Positions 11,313-45,955 of a stretch of DNA of 64,000 nucleotides are shown in pieces. The position numbers and the translations under genes are program-made. Numbering within the stretch: position 1 is the first letter of the stretch; every line of letters starts with the position of its first letter. The stretch spans positions 1 through 64,000 of the forward strand of contig JAJQFI010000003.1 in assembly GCA_021201235.1 (NCBI GenBank), in the 5' to 3' direction. Source of the stretch: Oscillospiraceae bacterium. GTDB lineage: Bacteria; Bacillota; Clostridia; Oscillospirales; Ruminococcaceae. The notes under the pieces are model-generated. The model ran no database searches. It was not told the origin of the DNA and saw only the letters and a list, made by a program, of their open reading frames with translations.

Positions 11313-12356
11313 TTAATTTTCAAGCATACTGTTTTTCCATGCCTCGGCGACATCCGCTGAACTGTAAAATCCGAACATTTTCCGGGGATAGTTATTCAGC
11401 CAATCCTCGACTTGCTGAATCTCTTCGTCTGTGACATGTGTAAAATCCGTCCCCTTCGGATGGTGCCGCCGGAGCATTCGGTTTTGATTTTCGTTCGAGC
11501 CTCTTTCACTCGAACAATACGGGTGGCAATAATAGACTTGAGTGCGTTTTTCACCTGTGAGCACACTCCGCTCGATGCCGTTGACGTCCATAAACTCCGA
11601 ACCGTTATCAACAGTTATCGTCTTGAATATCTGTTTGAATTTCTCGGTGCCGATTTGTTTTTCTATTTTGTCGAGCTGTTTGACGACACTTTCGGTTGTC
11701 TTGGACGGCATAAGGCGGAATAATTCCCAACGGCTTTTGCACTCTGTGAGTGCAAGAACCGTTTTCTTTGTCTTCTTTTTGCCCTCGACGCAATCCATTT
11801 CCCAATGTCCGAAATCTTCACGATTGTTGATGCTCTTCGGGCGTTGTTCTATGCTCGTGCCTCTGGGTGCACGGGAACCTCTTTTTTCTTCCTCTTTCTT
11901 TTTCTTGCCTTTGTTTTTCTTGATAGGCAGGTCGGCGTTGGATATAGTAAGAAAGATTCCATCATTGATATAGCGATAAAGCGTTGTCCGTGATACGGTG
12001 GTATTGAATTTTAAGCCTTTGCATTTGATTTCGCCGAGGACAGCGTCGGGCGAATACTTTTTGACGGATATCATATACTCGATATAAGCGGCGTATTCGT
12101 GGTCGTTGCCGATTTTTAAGCCGGTGCCTTTGGCAGTCAGATGCTCCCTATATTTATTTTCGGCGATGTCGGCGCTATAGCGTGTGTCCATAGTATAATC
12201 GCTGTTGAGATGCTCATAGGTTCCACGTTTAAGCTCCCGATATATAGTGCTGATATGTACACCGAGATTTTCTGCCATGACTTTCGCCGGAACTTTGGCA
12301 TTGCTCCAAGCCTCGATTTGAATCCTTGCAGTATAAGTTAAATGTTTGTGACCCAT
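11313..12356 (-). CDS. IS30-family transposase
   Basis: A 347-residue protein starting at MGHKHLTYTARIQIE. The N-terminal HTH (about 8-42, ending in STIYRELKRGT) is the IS30 DNA-binding domain. The DDE core has Asp in GHWEMDCVEG, Asp in ITVDNGSEF and Glu in SSERGSNENQNRMLRRHHPK, the typical IS30 spacing. No clear terminal inverted repeats were found close to the gene. It is the leftmost gene of the prophage and the only recombinase-type gene inside it. It may be a late insertion or the phage's own mobility enzyme. Confidence 0.92.
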   Translation of the reverse strand: MGHKHLTYTARIQIEAWSNAKVPAKVMAENLGVHISTIYRELKRGTYEHLNSDYTMDTRYSADIAENKYREHLTAKGTGLKIGNDHEYAAYIEYMISVKKYSPDAVLGEIKCKGLKFNTTVSRTTLYRYINDGIFLTISNADLPIKKNKGKKKKEEEKRGSRAPRGTSIEQRPKSINNREDFGHWEMDCVEGKKKTKKTVLALTECKSRWELFRLMPSKTTESVVKQLDKIEKQIGTEKFKQIFKTITVDNGSEFMDVNGIERSVLTGEKRTQVYYCHPYCSSERGSNENQNRMLRRHHPKGTDFTHVTDEEIQQVEDWLNNYPRKMFGFYSSADVAEAWKNSMLEN

Positions 12357-12456
12357 GATTTTCTCTCCGTTTCCTATTGAATAAAACAAAGCCCGCTCTT
12401 TGAGAACGGACTTTGTGGCAATGCTGATTTCGGCACAAAATGTTCCGATTTCACGA

Positions 12457-15899: not shown

Positions 15900-16250
15900 T
15901 TAATCACCTTCTTTTGACGCGACGTATTCAATGAAAGCAGCTTCGAGCGCTTCTACTCTTTCCGCCAACGTAGGATTGCTGACAGATTCCTCGCCGGTGT
16001 CCTCGTCGACGGTTGTGCCGTCGTTCTCGAAAAGCTCGTCAAAGCTTTCGGCGACATCCTCCTCACTAAGGCTTGTCCTGAAATAGACCTCATCGGCTTC
16101 GTAATGTGTTCTGGCTTCGCCGTCTTGCTCATCCTCGACCTCGGCGATGTTTTTCCGAAGCCAGACATCTGCAAGCTCTGAGTTAGGCAACGGCATATAC
16201 TGCATTGCCTCCGGCTTTTCCGTGTACTGTGTCAACTGTGACATTTGCAT
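15900..16250 (-). CDS. Acidic tail-associated phage protein
   Basis: A 116-residue, very acidic protein whose start overlaps the 3' end of the reverse-transcriptase gene by 68 bases. AAAGGA stands upstream; the second ATG at 16244 is better spaced and may be the true start. A C-terminal helix (LAERVEALEAAFIEYVAS) is typical of proteins encoded before XkdX in tail-fibre operons. Function unknown. Confidence 0.65.
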   Translation of the reverse strand: MQMSQLTQYTEKPEAMQYMPLPNSELADVWLRKNIAEVEDEQDGEARTHYEADEVYFRTSLSEEDVAESFDELFENDGTTVDEDTGEESVSNPTLAERVEALEAAFIEYVASKEGD

Positions 16251-17451
16251 TCATCCTTTCGTTTATACTGACTATTTCTCCCGCCTTCTTAAAGAGCTTA
16301 TACAGATTGAGCTTGTACATAATCTTATAATTTCTGAATTTCAGCGTTTTCTTTTTCTGCTTATAGTAGCCTTTGAAGGCTGATAACCGTCGGGCTTGTC
16401 TTAAGGACATCCCGTGCCGGTTACTTCTCTGAGCCGTCCGCCGTGAGCGGATAAATACCCGAGGTCTGATGCTGACCGTGCCGTCGGCTCTTACGAGATA
16501 GCCCATCATGTCGATAGGTGTCTTGTCTAACTCTTGTATTTGCCAGAGAGGTTTGATATCAACTCCGATTTCGGCTTTGACATAAGCCTCTATCTTTCTG
16601 ACTGCCTGCTTGAGGCTTGAACGTGAGCTTCCGGTGAAGAGCATATCGTCCATGAAGAAAAGTCCGTGAGTTATAAGCTTGATTTTCTTATCCCGTCGTG
16701 TCTTGGTGAGCGTCATTGCATATCTGTATACGAAAGATAACAGATATTGTGCCGCCTGCTGAGAGATAAGTGCACCAATCATAAAGCCTTCGTAACCGTT
16801 GACCTTATGCGAGTTTAAAAGCGTTTCCCATAGCCAAAGAATATCTTTGTTTTTGCAATCCCGGCGGAATCGCCGCATAAACATCTCGGTGCGGAGCGAC
16901 GGATAGCATTGCTTAACGTCGAGCTTGACGTGTTCCTTACATTTCCGGCTGTATCTGTAGCCGTGCTCTTTGGCGTATTCCGCCGCACGATTGTCCTTTT
17001 GCACCCATGAGCTTATCATTGCGATGCCGTAGACCTGACCTCGGTTTCGGATGCTCGAGGCTTGTTGTGGTACAATCCGACGGTTCCAGATATCCTCACA
17101 TGACCGAATAGCGATATAGTCGAAAATCTGTTGCATCGCAGATTCTCTTCCGATTTGTCTCAACTTGAGAGACGACTTATCCCGCCTGTACTGTATAACC
17201 ACCGGCGCGAGCTTCAAATTTCTTTCTTTGATTCTCTTAGCGGCTTCTTCGGCTATACGTCTTTTCGGCTCTTCGAGTAGGCTTAAATCGCCATTAACGG
17301 CTTTTCGGTAATTCTCTTTTGTCATACCGCCGACCGTGAGAAGAAGCTTCTCAAAGTCGTGCCGCTTTTTATGCCGGTCTATGCACTCTCCAGCCCAAGG
17401 CAAAATAGTATTGACATCGGTAATATCAATCTGTTTACAACTGCTTTTCAT
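16183..17451 (-). CDS. Reverse transcriptase of a diversity-generating retroelement
   Basis: A 422-residue RT. Motif A is VKLDVKQCYPSL with Asp178. The segment IGALISQ (225-231) is the DGR-specific form of the usual QGxxxSP. The catalytic FMDD is at 266-269 and motif D/E lies in DMMGYLVRADG. The start is taken at MKSSCKQ because the frame further upstream only covers the RNA region next to the template. In DGRs the RT copies the TR RNA with adenine-specific errors, and the cDNA replaces the VR of a target gene. TR (17633-17742) and target VR (17906-18015) are adjacent. No avd gene lies between, which is unusual. Confidence 0.95.
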   Translation of the reverse strand: MKSSCKQIDITDVNTILPWAGECIDRHKKRHDFEKLLLTVGGMTKENYRKAVNGDLSLLEEPKRRIAEEAAKRIKERNLKLAPVVIQYRRDKSSLKLRQIGRESAMQQIFDYIAIRSCEDIWNRRIVPQQASSIRNRGQVYGIAMISSWVQKDNRAAEYAKEHGYRYSRKCKEHVKLDVKQCYPSLRTEMFMRRFRRDCKNKDILWLWETLLNSHKVNGYEGFMIGALISQQAAQYLLSFVYRYAMTLTKTRRDKKIKLITHGLFFMDDMLFTGSSRSSLKQAVRKIEAYVKAEIGVDIKPLWQIQELDKTPIDMMGYLVRADGTVSIRPRVFIRSRRTAQRSNRHGMSLRQARRLSAFKGYYKQKKKTLKFRNYKIMYKLNLYKLFKKAGEIVSINERMNANVTVDTVHGKAGGNAVYAVA

Positions 17452-17632
17452 TCCGCCTATGTGTTTCTTTCTGTGACGTTTGCGGGACGTTCGGCTCACT
17501 TTCGTTAGAAAGTGTCTTACCAGCCCCGAGGCTTCGTTCGTCAATTTTCCCCGCAGGGTAGGTGCACCGTTTGAGGTGCGTGTTACTGTTTTCCGCAACC
17601 GCCTTGCATTGTACTGCCTCTAAATCAAAACA

Positions 17633-17742
17633 CAGATTGCCGAGCAACGATGTTCCAGTTCGCATTCGAGACGCCGTTGTTACCGTTGACGCACGAAAGA
17701 CCGCCATTCGCCACGCCGTTGTTCAAGTTACCACGGACGAGC
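17633..17742 (-). repeat. DGR template repeat (TR)
   Basis: A 110-bp non-coding copy of the VR, 181 bases upstream of the RT start on the same strand. On the coding strand it reads as Asn-rich codons (AAC/AAT at 10 places, plus one CAA). The plus strand has 23 T (= coding-strand A) in this interval, 12 of which differ in the VR. No other base differs. Homology stops sharply at 17742/18015. Confidence 0.95.
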
Positions 17743-17836
17743 CCACACGGGAAAAACCGTCGCTATCTCAATGCAAGACCCTATTAAATTTCTAAAAGCC
17801 TATATCACTATTCGATGTTTGTTTGATGTGTGGACA

Positions 17837-17884
17837 AGGGGCAAAGCCCCTCTATGTGGCATTAAGCAAAAGCTTAAGCCACAT
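17837..17884. repeat. Two hairpins downstream of the VR, probable DGR homing structure
   Basis: The first is a 13-bp stem with one bulged A: ATGTGGC (17854-17860), A, TTAAGC (17862-17867), an AAAA loop, then GCTTAA-GCCACAT (17872-17884). It includes the stop codon of the target gene. The second is AGGGGC-AAA-GCCCCT (17837-17851). Inverted repeats just behind the VR are needed for efficient retrohoming in the BPP-1 DGR, and these lie in the matching position. Confidence 0.75.
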
Positions 17885-18974
17885 ATTCACCCCGGGTGCC
17901 ATTTGCAGAAAGCCGAGCAACGATGTTCCAGACCGCATACGAGACGCCGTTGATACCGAGGACGCACGAAAGACCGCCATGCGCCACGCCGTAGTTCAAG
18001 GCACCACGGACGAGCATTTCGCGGGTGCCGGTAGCGTTTGCATTCAGATAAATCGCGTCTCTGGTGTAGGTTGAGCTCGAGCCGCCGATTTCGCAGGGGA
18101 ATCTTACGCCTTCCGATTCGGCAACCTTCTTGATATAGTTCCAACTATCCGAGCTCGGCTGTTTGAGGATGATTCCGGTCGCTATGTAGTTATCGGTGAT
18201 AGAGCTCGAGAGGTTTGCAGACGAATTGACGACATACGGCTCATAATAATAAACCGATTCGTCTTCTTCGTCCTGATAGAGCTTGAGGATAACGTCCGCC
18301 ACAACCTCATATCCGCCGTTCATGATTTCGATTCCCTGAATCTTTGCCGGGTATTTACCGGAAGTGTTAGATTTCGGTGAGCCGTCATTGCCTAAAACGC
18401 AATCGGTCGAGCCGGTTATCCAATGCCATGTGGATATATAGGTTGTGCCTTCGGTCGCCGTTCCATTTGCAGTCGTGTCGAATGTGCTGTCCAAATCAAC
18501 ATAAACAACTGAGTACTCAACCTCGTCTATGGTGACGGTCTCAATCGCCGTGATAAGGCATCCGGCGTTTGTGGATATGCTGTACATTGCCGCCGTGCCT
18601 CTGTCAAGCGGTGAGCTCGCAGATGAATTATAATAGCCGACGATGACACTCATGCCGACCTCGAGATTTGCGGCGCTTGTGGTCGTCAAAATGATTCTCT
18701 TAACGCCTTCCTCGGAGACCTGAGCCGGGTATTGATAATTATTATTGACGCATCCCTGAACAATGCCGTCGAGTGTCAGACTTGCATGCTTGACTTCGAC
18801 CATGATATCAACGAAGGATTTGTCCGCCGATGTCATGCCGGAATACTGCGCGCCGTTCTTATGTGCAAGAGTGATAAGAGACGATTCCGAGTTCCATGCC
18901 GTCGGAATCAAACCTGCGCATGATGTCATCAAGCCGTCGTTGTGTGAGACGGATATTTCGCATGTACAACCCAC
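17874..18974 (-). CDS. DGR target protein, C-terminal part (receptor-binding/C-type-lectin-like, contains VR)
   Basis: The frame from 18974 (GTG) to the TAA at 17874 encodes about 366 residues. It contains SHNDGLMTSCAGLIPTAW, the continuation expected after WVVHAKYPS in the upstream frame, then a variable-domain region ending with the VR-encoded GALNYGVAHGGLSC and GVSYAVWNIVAR. The end matches the C-type-lectin-fold variable domains of DGR targets such as Mtd, with hypervariable residues exposed for receptor binding. The GTG has no clear ribosome site. The part is very probably the broken-off C-terminus of the gene at 18929-20035. Confidence 0.8.
   Translation of the reverse strand: MGCTCEISVSHNDGLMTSCAGLIPTAWNSESSLITLAHKNGAQYSGMTSADKSFVDIMVEVKHASLTLDGIVQGCVNNNYQYPAQVSEEGVKRIILTTTSAANLEVGMSVIVGYYNSSASSPLDRGTAAMYSISTNAGCLITAIETVTIDEVEYSVVYVDLDSTFDTTANGTATEGTTYISTWHWITGSTDCVLGNDGSPKSNTSGKYPAKIQGIEIMNGGYEVVADVILKLYQDEEDESVYYYEPYVVNSSANLSSSITDNYIATGIILKQPSSDSWNYIKKVAESEGVRFPCEIGGSSSTYTRDAIYLNANATGTREMLVRGALNYGVAHGGLSCVLGINGVSYAVWNIVARLSANGTRGEYVA
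17906..18015 (-). repeat. DGR variable repeat (VR) in the target gene
   Basis: Aligns without gaps to the TR at an offset of 273. The twelve differences are at 17910, 17911, 17932, 17933, 17939, 17953, 17959, 17960, 17981, 17993, 18001 and 18002. In every case the TR coding strand has A. Resulting changes against the TR-encoded sequence are Asn to Ala, Tyr, His, Leu, Ile, Tyr and Val, and Gln to Leu. The VR ends 30 bases before the stop codon. Confidence 0.95.
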
Positions 18975-20035
18975 TGGCGGAATGTGCCGTCGGGGTTGAC
19001 CGCCTCCGACAAGGGCATGACGGAATAGGGGACGTTGCTGTTTGCCGAATAGATTCTTGTATAGACGTCATCGGCTTCGACCCTGCATGTCCACGCTGAC
19101 ATCTGCAATACACCGACATAAACGGTTGGGTCGGTGGATTTGAAATCATCGGTAACGCCGTCAATCGCCGTTATAACCGGCTGTAGCGTGTCGGCATCAA
19201 CGATAAAGTTGCAATCCATAATCGCAAAGAGAGGATGACCTTCGTAATCGTCCTGACCTTTGACCGTGTCGGTGGACGGAGTGCAGGTGAAATCGGCATC
19301 GTCGCCGGTCTTTGTGCCGTATGTAACCGCCGACACGCTCGGCTGATAAAATTCGTTTATGGATATCCATTCGCCGGGACGGGTGACGGCATACCACTCA
19401 TCGCAAAAGGCGGTGACGGAATTCCAACTGCCGATAAGATAATACTTTCGCATTACGTCTTTATACGTTGCGTAGGTTCCGTCGAGCAAGGACAAGAGAT
19501 AGGTCTTTGCATTCTGCAATGCGGCTTCGATTGCAATCTTACAGGCTTCCTCGGTGTCCTCTGATAGGCTCAAGGCGTCGGTCGCTATTTCCAGTGCCGA
19601 GGTTGAGACGCCTAAAACGCCGCTTATCGCGTTGAGCGCGGCTGTGAGAGCCGTGTATTCGTCCGAGCTTTCGATATCCGGGTCGACGGATGCCGCCGTT
19701 ACCTTGACGATAAACGGCACCGTTGTAAGGCTTGCATCGTCCGCGTAAAGCGTGACCTCGCAGACGCAATTTCCGACCGCCGCGAGCATGTTTTCGGTGA
19801 GCTCCGCCGTGATTGTATAGTCTTCATTGATAGTTGCATCGTTGAGGACATATGTCCCGTCGGGCTTCCGACATCTGAGTGTGGCTATAGCGCCGTCGGG
19901 AATCTCAAAGGTCTCACCGTTTGACAAGATTGTAATCTTGACATAGCGAGAGCCTTCGTCGCCCTGAACCGCCGTTATGTAGCTGAAATACATTTTGCCC
20001 GAGAGGTCGACCGTGATTTCTTTGATATATTGCAT
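18929..20035 (-). CDS. DGR target / tail-tip protein, N-terminal part (BppU-like)
   Basis: A 368-residue frame. The first about 110 residues (IKEITVDLSGKMYFSYITA, GDEGSRYVKI, DGAIATLRCRKPDG) match the N-terminal domain of phage baseplate upper proteins (BppU family). A helical spacer and a domain ending PDGTFRQWVVHAKYPSH follow. The frame then ends within five codons (TTTA-stop), exactly where the -1 frame carries on with the family sequence. A CACACA tract (18946-18941) lies at the break; removing one CA restores a single gene of about 720 codons. Confidence 0.85.
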   Translation of the reverse strand: MQYIKEITVDLSGKMYFSYITAVQGDEGSRYVKITILSNGETFEIPDGAIATLRCRKPDGTYVLNDATINEDYTITAELTENMLAAVGNCVCEVTLYADDASLTTVPFIVKVTAASVDPDIESSDEYTALTAALNAISGVLGVSTSALEIATDALSLSEDTEEACKIAIEAALQNAKTYLLSLLDGTYATYKDVMRKYYLIGSWNSVTAFCDEWYAVTRPGEWISINEFYQPSVSAVTYGTKTGDDADFTCTPSTDTVKGQDDYEGHPLFAIMDCNFIVDADTLQPVITAIDGVTDDFKSTDPTVYVGVLQMSAWTCRVEADDVYTRIYSANSNVPYSVMPLSEAVNPDGTFRQWVVHAKYPSHTTTA

Positions 20036-42874: not shown

Positions 42875-45800
42875 TTAGCCGGTAACTCTGACCACTGCTA
42901 CTCCAGTGAGGTTGGCATAATTGCCGCCGTCTTTGCCTGCCCACCAGTTCAAAATAACACCGTCGCTCACATCAAATCCAGCATCTTCAAAAGCTTCCTT
43001 AATCTCGACTAGTGAAACAATTATAACCCCGCTTCTGTCAACTCCGCCGATCTGTTCACCGAAGAGTGCAGTAATCATGTTCCAGTTTGAGGTATAAATC
43101 CCCATAGGACCCCAACCGATGTAATCGTCATCCAAAAGGTCATAGTAAATGTACAAATACAACTCAGGGTCGGTAAAGTCGTAATCCTGCAAGAAGTCAA
43201 GCATATCGCTGTCGGTCATTTTTTCAGAATAGAGGACGGTTTCGACCGTTTCGGCGCTTGCGCTCTCAGCTTCTGTTTCACTGTATTGTACCACCGAGAA
43301 GCTCTTGAAGACGGTGCCCTCTTCGCAGTTAAGACTTACGAGGCGAAGGTCATTGACATCGTAACCGTTCTCCTCAAAAGCTTCAAGGATTTTACTGCAA
43401 GAGAACAGATAGGTAATTGTGCCGTCGTCGTTCTCTGTAACCGTATACAACGGAATCTCCTCATTGGAATTAGAATCATAACTGACAAAGCTAAGCCAAT
43501 CACAGAAAACTTCGAGCGTGAACTGAATATTAAGTATCAGATACGAAGAACGTGGAGCATAGGAAACAATTTCAATGTAAGTGTCCTCACCTTGAATAGC
43601 CTCGATAAGCTCAGACATGTGCTCGCCTTTGTAATTTATAAAGACAACATCGCCTAATACAAAAGCTCCTACTTCCCCTTGCTCACCGGCAACAATGCCA
43701 TCAATGAGCCACTGTTCTTCGATAACTTCTCCATCACCGTCATCTTCATCGTAATACTCAATACCATCGGTGTATTCGAGAGACCAAGGGTAGGATATGC
43801 CGGTATAGGTAGCTTCCGGAATTTCATCCACAACCTCTATCTTCGTCACATGAATCTTCTCTTCCCAAGTCAGACTGTCGATATAGACACAGCGGATGTC
43901 TTCGAGAGTTAAACCGAGGTCGGAGACGAGGTCGATTATGCTTTGGCACTCGAAATAGGTAGTATAGGTGCCGTCGTCGTTGCGGACTGCGGTGCACCTT
44001 TCGACGTACTGCCAACCAACTAAGCCGATATTCATGGCAAGCTTGATGTCTGCCGAGTCTGCGGTTACGGCGACATAAGCGCCATCCTGATTGACTGCGG
44101 CATAGAATTGTTCAAGAAGCTCTGTGTCGCCTTCTTCTATAACTCCGCTTCCCTCTCCGAAGGTCAGAACGGTGACGTCGACATCAAGCGACCAAGCGGC
44201 GAAGCTGTTTTCGGCAACGATTTCCTCTTCCCCGTTGTCTTCCTGATTTGTCTTGACGGAAGAGATTACCACTGCTCCTGCGTCTTCGCCGCACCGAAGG
44301 ACTATCGAGGAGACGGTCTTGCTTGAGTCGATGTCGAGAGTCATGGTGTTGGTGAATTTGTAGCCGGTCTGGGTGAGGGTGCCGTCGGAGTAGTTGACGA
44401 TGAGGTTCACGCCGACGTTTCTTTCGGAGAGGTTGACCTTGATGTAATCAAGGGTAGCTCCCTCGTCGAACGCCCAACCTGTGGCGGCTTTGGCTTCCGT
44501 ATACTCGATGGTTCTGGTGCTTGCGTCGTAGCTTGCACCGTCCTCGTGATAGGAGTCGATGGCGACGCCTTCAATCCTGAACCACTTTTCGTTTAAGTAG
44601 CCAGAGGTGTCGTTATTATTCTTACTGCCGCTGTTCGACCCGACTATAGCCCAGACTATGCCGGTGACGGCGAGGGCTATTACGAGGATGATGACGACGA
44701 CGGCGATGATAACGGTTTTGTTGCCGGATTTCTTTTTCTCCTCGAGCTTGTCCTTCGGGACGACTATTTCGTCGGTGACGAAGAGGGGCTTTTCCTCGGC
44801 AGTAAGAATTCTGTCGGGATCTTTTGCAGGCTCGGTCTCCGAAGAAACCTCCTCCGGCTCCTCCTCGGGATTGTCGAAGAGCTTTTCCCGGACGGTAAGA
44901 CCCATGGCGGGCGCCGTCTTCTTCTGCTTCGGCTTGCGAATCTGACCCTTCTTCTGGGCTTTCTCGCTGACAACCGTCTCGACGGTGTTGCCATAGAGTG
45001 CGCCCTGGAACTGATTCATCGAAGAGAAACGGTCAACCGGTCTGACGGCAAGAGCCTTCATCAGGGCATCCTCCTGCCGCTCGGTTATCTTGATGCCGAG
45101 CTTGTGCGGCGGGACGATGTTGTCGCCCATGATTCTGTCGGTCGAACGTGGCGGCGGATTGCCCGTCAAGCAATAGTAGATTGAGGCGCCGAAGGCATAG
45201 ACGTCCGTCCAAGGACCCTGATTACTGCTCATCTGGTATTGCTCAAAGGGAGAATAGCCGTGCTTGAGAATGAGGGTCTGGGTCTGCTGATTGACCTGCG
45301 AGCTGTCGGTGACATCCTTGGCACAGCCGAAATCGAGGAGCTTGATGTCTCCGTTTTCGAGCATGAGGTTGTCAGGGCTTATGTCGCGGTGGATAAGCCC
45401 GAGGTCGTGCATGTGCTGAATCGCTCCGAACATCGGCTTTATCATCTCGAAAAGCTCGTCTGCGGGGATTCTTCCTCCGCGCTGGGCGGTCAGCTCTTTG
45501 AGGGTTGTGCCCTCGATGTATTCCATGACGATATAGACGGTGTTGTTCTCCTGGAAGAAATCCTTGACACCGACAATCTGCGGTTCCTTTTCGAGCTTGC
45601 CCATGGTCATTGCTTCCTGCAAAAACTTGAACTTGCCCTTTTCATAGGTGCCGGTCGTTCTTGACGAACTGGTTACCGTTATGGACTCCTGATTGTTTCT
45701 CGCGGCATTTCCGACGGGATAATACTCCTTGACGGCAATCTTAAGCCCAAGGCGGGTGTCACGCCCGACATATGTAATGCCGAAGCCGCCCTCACCGAGG

Positions 45801-45955
45801 ACTCTGCCGATTAAGTATCTGTCCTGAAGAACCGTACCCGGGAGCAGATGATGCGGTGCGGGAACATAGCTTCCCTCCGTCAGTCCGCAGGCGGGGCAAA
45901 CCCCGTTCTCCTTGACAGGTGTCATACAGTATGGACAATATCTCACTTCATCCAT
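42875..45955 (-). CDS. Transmembrane Ser/Thr kinase with N-terminal zinc ribbon and large outer domain
   Basis: A 1026-residue protein. A zinc ribbon (YCPYCMTPVKENGVCPACG, 6-24) is followed by a Hanks-type kinase domain (about 45-325): G-loop LGEGGFGITY, VKEYYP with the ATP lysine, HRDISPDNLM, LLDFGCAKD and GYSPFEQY in the activation segment. An acidic linker leads to one TM helix (about 424-448) and about 570 outer residues of repeated beta domains without PASTA motifs. The outer part may sense an envelope signal. AAGGAG lies before the ATG. Confidence 0.93.
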   Translation of the reverse strand: MDEVRYCPYCMTPVKENGVCPACGLTEGSYVPAPHHLLPGTVLQDRYLIGRVLGEGGFGITYVGRDTRLGLKIAVKEYYPVGNAARNNQESITVTSSSRTTGTYEKGKFKFLQEAMTMGKLEKEPQIVGVKDFFQENNTVYIVMEYIEGTTLKELTAQRGGRIPADELFEMIKPMFGAIQHMHDLGLIHRDISPDNLMLENGDIKLLDFGCAKDVTDSSQVNQQTQTLILKHGYSPFEQYQMSSNQGPWTDVYAFGASIYYCLTGNPPPRSTDRIMGDNIVPPHKLGIKITERQEDALMKALAVRPVDRFSSMNQFQGALYGNTVETVVSEKAQKKGQIRKPKQKKTAPAMGLTVREKLFDNPEEEPEEVSSETEPAKDPDRILTAEEKPLFVTDEIVVPKDKLEEKKKSGNKTVIIAVVVIILVIALAVTGIVWAIVGSNSGSKNNNDTSGYLNEKWFRIEGVAIDSYHEDGASYDASTRTIEYTEAKAATGWAFDEGATLDYIKVNLSERNVGVNLIVNYSDGTLTQTGYKFTNTMTLDIDSSKTVSSIVLRCGEDAGAVVISSVKTNQEDNGEEEIVAENSFAAWSLDVDVTVLTFGEGSGVIEEGDTELLEQFYAAVNQDGAYVAVTADSADIKLAMNIGLVGWQYVERCTAVRNDDGTYTTYFECQSIIDLVSDLGLTLEDIRCVYIDSLTWEEKIHVTKIEVVDEIPEATYTGISYPWSLEYTDGIEYYDEDDGDGEVIEEQWLIDGIVAGEQGEVGAFVLGDVVFINYKGEHMSELIEAIQGEDTYIEIVSYAPRSSYLILNIQFTLEVFCDWLSFVSYDSNSNEEIPLYTVTENDDGTITYLFSCSKILEAFEENGYDVNDLRLVSLNCEEGTVFKSFSVVQYSETEAESASAETVETVLYSEKMTDSDMLDFLQDYDFTDPELYLYIYYDLLDDDYIGWGPMGIYTSNWNMITALFGEQIGGVDRSGVIIVSLVEIKEAFEDAGFDVSDGVILNWWAGKDGGNYANLTGVAVVRVTG

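What the first reader, a model, noticed from the sequence alone, without database searches (positions are those of the whole stretch)
16183..18015. Complete phage DGR with pure adenine-specific mutagenesis signature
TR 17633-17742 and VR 17906-18015 align without gaps over 110 bases. All 12 differences fall on A of the TR coding strand; 11 of the remaining A are unchanged and no C, G or T differs. The RT next to it has the DGR-type IGALISQ and FMDD motifs. The changed codons alter seven Asn codons and one Gln codon in the C-terminal lectin-like domain. This points to a mutagenic element active in the recent past that diversifies the phage's receptor-binding protein.
Basis: partly seen in the sequence, partly recalled or inferred. 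Interest (0 to 1): 0.88.

Follow-up and report, generated by a model that had tools for sequence, protein, structure and literature searches.

The report
Phage protein-diversifying element with split target

Summary
TR (17633-17742, minus strand) and VR (17906-18015) align without gaps; all 12 differences fall on the 23 TR adenines (p = 4e-10). The RT groups with diversity-generating retroelement (DGR) RTs (100/99 support). Of 9 other loci scanned, 7 show the same pattern (0-1 other changes).

Three corrections. (1) Two of the 12 differences (17637-17638) lie where six of six VRs of the family in this genus read CGGCTTTC while their TRs differ: best read as IMH/IMH* marks, leaving about 10 mutagenic changes. 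(2) The target gene is split: VR lies in ORF 17874-18974, in another frame from the BppU_N ORF 18929-20035; 5 of 6 other family loci of the genus read through this region in one ORF. (3) The lectin fold could not be confirmed.

The last copying event looks recent: 0 of 87 non-A sites differ, where 7-9 would be expected had it preceded the split from the nearest relative. That relative lacks a separate VR and has a stop in its RT. No Avd gene was found. An acidic ORF (15900-16250) follows a DGR-type RT in 15 of 16 viral contigs found with it alone.

The parts
17633..17742 (-). template repeat (TR)
   Evidence: 110-base gapless match to VR, all 12 mismatches at TR adenines
17906..18015 (-). variable repeat (VR), near the 3' end of the target ORF
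   Evidence: no other copy found in the genome
17637..17638 (-). probable IMH* difference in the TR (pairs with 17910-17911 of the VR)
   Evidence: VR 3' end CGGCTTTC is the same in six of six family VRs of the genus while the TRs differ there
16183..17451 (-). DGR reverse transcriptase, 422 aa (open frame extends up to 17598)
   Evidence: phrog_1423, family alignment, tree, profile match to BPP-1 Brt
17452..17632 (-). TR-RT spacer, predicted structured RNA
   Evidence: consensus structure with covarying stems
17874..18974 (-). C-terminal part of the target gene, holds VR
   Evidence: phrog_17147 positions 263-616; 52-83% identity to the five relatives with one ORF
18929..20035 (-). N-terminal part of the target gene, in another frame; BppU_N baseplate domain
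   Evidence: PF10651 E=3.7e-11; phrog_17147 positions 25-262
18929..18974 (-). overlap of the two target ORFs, where the frame is broken
   Evidence: homology to uninterrupted relatives passes from one frame to the other here
17853..17885 (-). hairpin/cruciform sequence 3' of VR; 14 pairs, one-base bulge, TTTT loop
   Evidence: DNA fold of 17840-17900, z=-4.4; comparison
17837..17851 (-). second short G+C-rich hairpin after the target gene
15900..16250 (-). acidic 116-aa ORF overlapping the RT end, DGR-linked family of unknown function
   Evidence: phrog_37768; directly after the RT in 15 of 16 viral contigs found with it

Best explanation
This is a prophage DGR of the BPP-1 type in a Clostridia genome (its nearest named relative is an Oscillospiraceae MAG). 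Inferred mechanism, by analogy with BPP-1: a transcript of TR plus the structured spacer is reverse transcribed by the RT with random bases opposite A. The cDNA then replaces VR at the 3' end of a baseplate/tail-tip fibre gene, guided by IMH and the hairpin that follows VR. Shown here: the anatomy, the adenine-only signature, the RT's phylogeny, the conserved RNA and the likely recency of the last homing. Also shown: in this assembly the target gene is split between two frames, so the VR domain is either not joined to its baseplate anchor or is made only by recoding or re-initiation. The copy is most likely a recently working DGR whose target has since begun to decay (inference).
For: 12 of 12 differences at A. 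RT inside the DGR side of a 50-row tree, 100/99, with 22 RTs on the other side beside which no adenine-type repeat pair was found. Profile match to BPP-1 Brt at E=1.6e-7. Of 9 other loci scanned for TR/VR, 7 show pairs with 0-1 non-A mismatches, one is decayed (9 non-A) and one has no pair. The spacer's consensus structure pairs in 90.2% of cells, with 10 of 25 pairs changed on both sides. Expected non-A differences if the last homing were as old as the split from G001: 7-9; seen: 0 (p 9e-5 to 5e-4). phrog_17147 covers both ORFs in order; 4 of 6 other family loci of the genus have one ORF of 556-559 aa, and G001 one of 809 aa.
Against: No reads or second strain were available, so the frame break could be an assembly error. 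No Avd gene was found. The lectin fold is unconfirmed. The hairpin differs from most relatives. The recency estimate assumes that non-A sites of TR and VR change as fast as the neighbouring genes. A frame break need not be fatal: the first ORF's stop codon overlaps an in-frame ATG of the second (TGATG, 18931-18927, read).
Confidence: 0.85

Rival explanations
1. A fully working DGR: the apparent split of the target is an assembly or sequencing error and the phage makes one continuous diversified fibre.
For: Four family relatives and G001 have one ORF through this region; RT, TR, VR and spacer all look intact.
Against: A second genome (G004) also has a split target, at a different place, and G001 has other lesions, so damage to these genes is not rare in the genus. 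The hairpin is unusual too.
Confidence: 0.25
2. Two-polypeptide or recoded target: the stop of the first ORF overlaps a start of the second (TGATG), or ribosomes shift frame, so that the variable part is still made.
For: TGATG at 18931-18927. Precedent for frame-shifted DGR genes: the Quimbyvirus RT lies in three overlapping frames (PMC8008677, passages seen).
Against: The split is not conserved: five of six other family loci of the genus have one frame here, and G004 is split elsewhere. No Shine-Dalgarno-like sequence was seen upstream of the ATG (by eye).
Confidence: 0.15
3. Dead element: the DGR no longer homes because target and hairpin are damaged, and the TR/VR pattern is a relic.
For: Split target; unusual hairpin loop, and in BPP-1 loop changes drop homing to near background (PMC3240598 section 10). 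The sister G001 element looks dead.
Against: RT frame, RNA spacer, TR and IMH look intact, and 0 of 87 non-A sites have changed.
Confidence: 0.3

Closest known systems
BPP-1 DGR of Bordetella phage (mtd, avd, TR, brt)
   Same: Order target(VR)-TR-RT on one strand next to the tail and endolysin genes; adenine-only TR/VR; IMH/IMH*, hairpin after VR and structured spacer between TR and RT (BPP-1 side from PMC3240598 and PMC12875486, passages).
   Different: No Avd found (BPP-1 has it between mtd and TR); the target shows no detectable similarity to Mtd; the RT is about 20% identical in the aligned part; the target is split here.
RTs of Lactobacillus phage LBR48, Butyrivibrio phage Arawn and Faecalibacterium phage Epona
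   Same: Nearest named RTs in the tree; a small acidic ORF follows the RT. Their own TR/VR pairs were not checked here.
   Different: The window's family of 15 rows sits on a long own branch (1.04 changes per column); their small ORFs show no convincing similarity to the 116-aa ORF (best E=0.019 in a set of 8).
Unannotated human-gut phage records (MT836575, MT835469, MT835477, MT835485, MT839517)
   Same: RT 27-31% and target 29-34% identical, in the same five records.
   Different: Distant; all matches in that collection are below 60% identity.

Membership tests
Diversity-generating retroelement | RT of the DGR clade | tested here: met
   Tree of 50 RTs, 100/99 split from 22 other RTs; IGxxxSQ motif
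Diversity-generating retroelement | TR/VR pair with mismatches at TR adenines | tested here: met
   12 of 12 at A, p=3.8e-10; 0-1 non-A mismatches in 7 of 9 other loci scanned
Diversity-generating retroelement | IMH in VR distinct from IMH* in TR | tested here: met
   VR end CGGCTTTC constant in six of six family VRs of the genus, TR ends differ; sequence comparison only
Diversity-generating retroelement | structured RNA spacer between TR and RT | tested here: met
   7 sequences: 90.2% of cells paired, 10 of 25 pairs changed on both sides, covariation score reached by 0 of 500 shuffles; two of the five measures do not stand out (86 and 257 of 500)
Diversity-generating retroelement | hairpin/cruciform 3' of VR | tested here: inconclusive
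   A hairpin is present, but with a long stem and TTTT loop, unlike most relatives
Diversity-generating retroelement | Avd accessory protein (BPP-1; not universal, from recall) | tested here: inconclusive
   tblastn with BPP-1 Avd and a 136-aa candidate finds nothing in the window; distant forms are not excluded
Diversity-generating retroelement | C-type lectin fold of the target | tested here: inconclusive
   Model pLDDT 48; no relevant Pfam match in 11 members; hhalign with Mtd, probability 0.1%
Diversity-generating retroelement | ongoing homing in a population | not testable with these tools
   No reads and no second strain of the species at hand

The most novel reading that the evidence does not exclude
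The acidic 104-116-aa protein encoded directly after the RT (window 15900-16250) is a dedicated, unnamed partner of this DGR lineage (an accessory factor of RT or target that stands in for Avd), and the DGRs of this bacterial genus are being lost in different ways in different prophages.
Probability: 0.2. Interest if true: 0.5.

Novelty: new member of a known kind. Interest (0 to 1): 0.3.

Why it matters
Taken alone it adds one more prophage DGR to the many known. The useful part is comparative: one bacterial genus holds relatives with an intact pair, a collapsed TR/VR, a decayed TR and two split targets, which makes the loss of DGRs after lysogeny open to study (with the caveat that the named copies of these relatives are metagenome assemblies). 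The DGR-linked acidic ORF is a testable accessory candidate.

Full report
Observation. TR 17633-17742 and VR 17906-18015 (minus strand) were aligned. Over 110 bases there is no gap and there are 12 differences, all at the 23 TR adenines; p = 3.8e-10 for that under random placement. Seven Asn codons and one Gln codon change. Whole-genome searches find this pair only.

IMH correction. In one search I compared the pair with eight other loci. In the six loci of the window's own family in the genus (window, G003 twice, G004, G019, G029) the VR 3' end reads CGGCTTTC in every case, while the TRs read CGGCAATC, CGGAATTC or CGGATTTC. The two adenines at 17637-17638 are therefore best read as the fixed IMH/IMH* difference, and about ten changes as mutagenesis. 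In more distant relatives the spot varies: in L039 TR and VR agree there.

RT. The RT hits phrog_1423 at E=4e-38 and RVT_1 below its cut-off. A 50-row tree puts it with BPP-1 Brt, LBR48, Arawn, crAssphage LMMB, Epona and seven RTs with adenine-type TR/VR beside them, apart from 22 RTs for which no such repeats were found in the fetched flanks (100/99). Of 29 RT loci from the order, one gave no ORF (L078) and two with short ORFs were left out (L082, L084) before the tree. The window's family of 15 rows forms one clade on a long branch.

Relatives. Of 60 genomes searched with the RT, 7 match, the window's own included (G000, G001, G003, G004, G019, G029, G058). Contigs of five of these genomes have named copies: Clostridia MAGs, one titled Oscillospiraceae bacterium U.4_5, the others from samples named Lapin; a gut origin is my inference. 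In the TR/VR scan, besides the window, seven loci have a pair with 0-1 non-A mismatches (G003b, G004, G019, G029, G004C55, G004C36, G058), G003a has 10 A and 9 non-A mismatches, and G001 has no separate pair. In viral contigs, 4 of 6 RT relatives had a pair; the other two loci begin inside the RT.

Target gene. The VR sits near the end of ORF 17874-18974 (366 aa). The ORF before it, 18929-20035 (368 aa), carries a BppU_N baseplate domain. phrog_17147, one 616-residue family, matches the first ORF at 25-262 and the second at 263-616. In G003a, G003b, G019 and G029 the matching gene is one ORF of 556-559 aa (it lacks the BppU_N-like start), and in G001 one of 809 aa. G004 is also split, at another place. 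So intact copies exist and the window's copy is broken within 18929-18974. Whether this is a real mutation, an assembly error, or tolerated by re-initiation (stop and ATG overlap as TGATG) is open.

Closest relative. G001 is 90-92% identical over RT, acidic ORF and endolysin, but 271 of the 273 bases of VR and the VR-TR gap have no counterpart, so one repeat remains, and the RT has an in-frame stop. Its DGR looks dead while its target is continuous: the opposite of the window.

Recency. None of 87 non-A positions differs between TR and VR. Had they been apart as long as the window and G001, 7-9 differences would be expected (p 5e-4 to 9e-5), if non-A sites change as fast as those neighbouring genes. 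The last homing is therefore probably younger than that split.

RNA and hairpin. The TR-RT spacer has a conserved consensus structure. Counted on 7 sequences (two pairs of them close relatives), 90.2% of cells pair, 10 of 25 pairs have changes on both sides, and 0 of 500 shuffles reach the percentage paired, the cells changed on both sides or the covariation score; the number of pairs changed on both sides (86 of 500 shuffles as high) and of further pair types (257 of 500) do not stand out; sliding the partners drops the score from 0.49 to 0.12 or less. After VR the window has a stable hairpin (z = -4.4 for 61 bases) of 14 pairs with a one-base bulge and a TTTT loop. In 12 of 21 loci (the window counted among the 21, and three near-copies L052-L054 among the 12) the target stop codon lies in a 3-5-base loop of a hairpin of at least five pairs; the window is not one of them, and neither are eight others. 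In BPP-1, longer stem insertions gradually lower homing and loop changes drop it to near background (PMC3240598, section 10 read), so homing here may be reduced (inference).

Accessory genes. tblastn with BPP-1 Avd finds no match in the window or in 19 loci, only in its own record. An acidic ORF (7 K+R, 32 D+E) overlaps the RT end. Searching viral contigs with this family alone gave 16 loci, of which 15 have an RT of this profile directly upstream; 12 of the 15 also show an adenine-type TR/VR pair, the other three (L051, L059, L062) being cut off inside or shortly before the RT. The 15 include one contig already in the RT set (L066, same contig as L042), three near-copies (L052-L054) and one RT lying in two frames (L060). 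L065 has the ORF after a tail-type gene but no RT in 10 kb. A further scan with divergent members gave no new contig. In 295 genomes of the order, three besides the window's own match: two have the RT beside it, and in the third the contig ends 186 bases upstream. Similar acidic ORFs follow the RTs of LBR48 and Epona without convincing similarity, so a tail-module gene with the DGR inserted before it explains the data as well as an accessory protein.

Literature. Papers seen: passages of PMC8144416, PMC11792537, PMC12875486, PMC6642488 and PMC8008677; passages and section 10 of PMC3240598; other titles in listings only. PMC8144416 reports that alignments of TR and VR overwhelmingly have at least 75% of mismatches facing A across all DGR clades, so the signature itself is ordinary. 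A search for DGR, prophage and Oscillospiraceae gave one paper, by its abstract about Mushuvirus mushu. I make no claim that this element is absent from DGR catalogues.

Noticed in passing
L025:11013-12760 and L028:10512-12259: Downstream of the first DGR, two relatives carry a second RT with a 136-aa ORF before it and a weak Rfam RT-2 match just upstream (E=0.004). The L025 copy falls on the DGR side of the tree: two DGR-type RTs in one prophage; no second TR/VR pair was found in these loci.
   Followed up: partly
L024:8727-8838: The TR of G003a itself is changed at 8 of 20 adenines conserved in other TRs against 6 of 47 conserved non-A sites (p=0.017), as if the template had been mutated by its own machinery; weak evidence.
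   Followed up: partly
L023:7656-10085: In G001 VR and TR appear collapsed into one repeat, so that the target gene now ends in TR-type sequence, and the RT has an in-frame stop.
   Followed up: yes
L026:1478-3153: A second split target gene in the genus, broken at a different place.
   Followed up: no
window 11313-12389: Transposase gene (phrog_4646) near the lysis end of the prophage.
   Followed up: no
window 42875-45955: 1026-aa protein with a match to phage serine-threonine kinases (phrog_2361).
   Followed up: no
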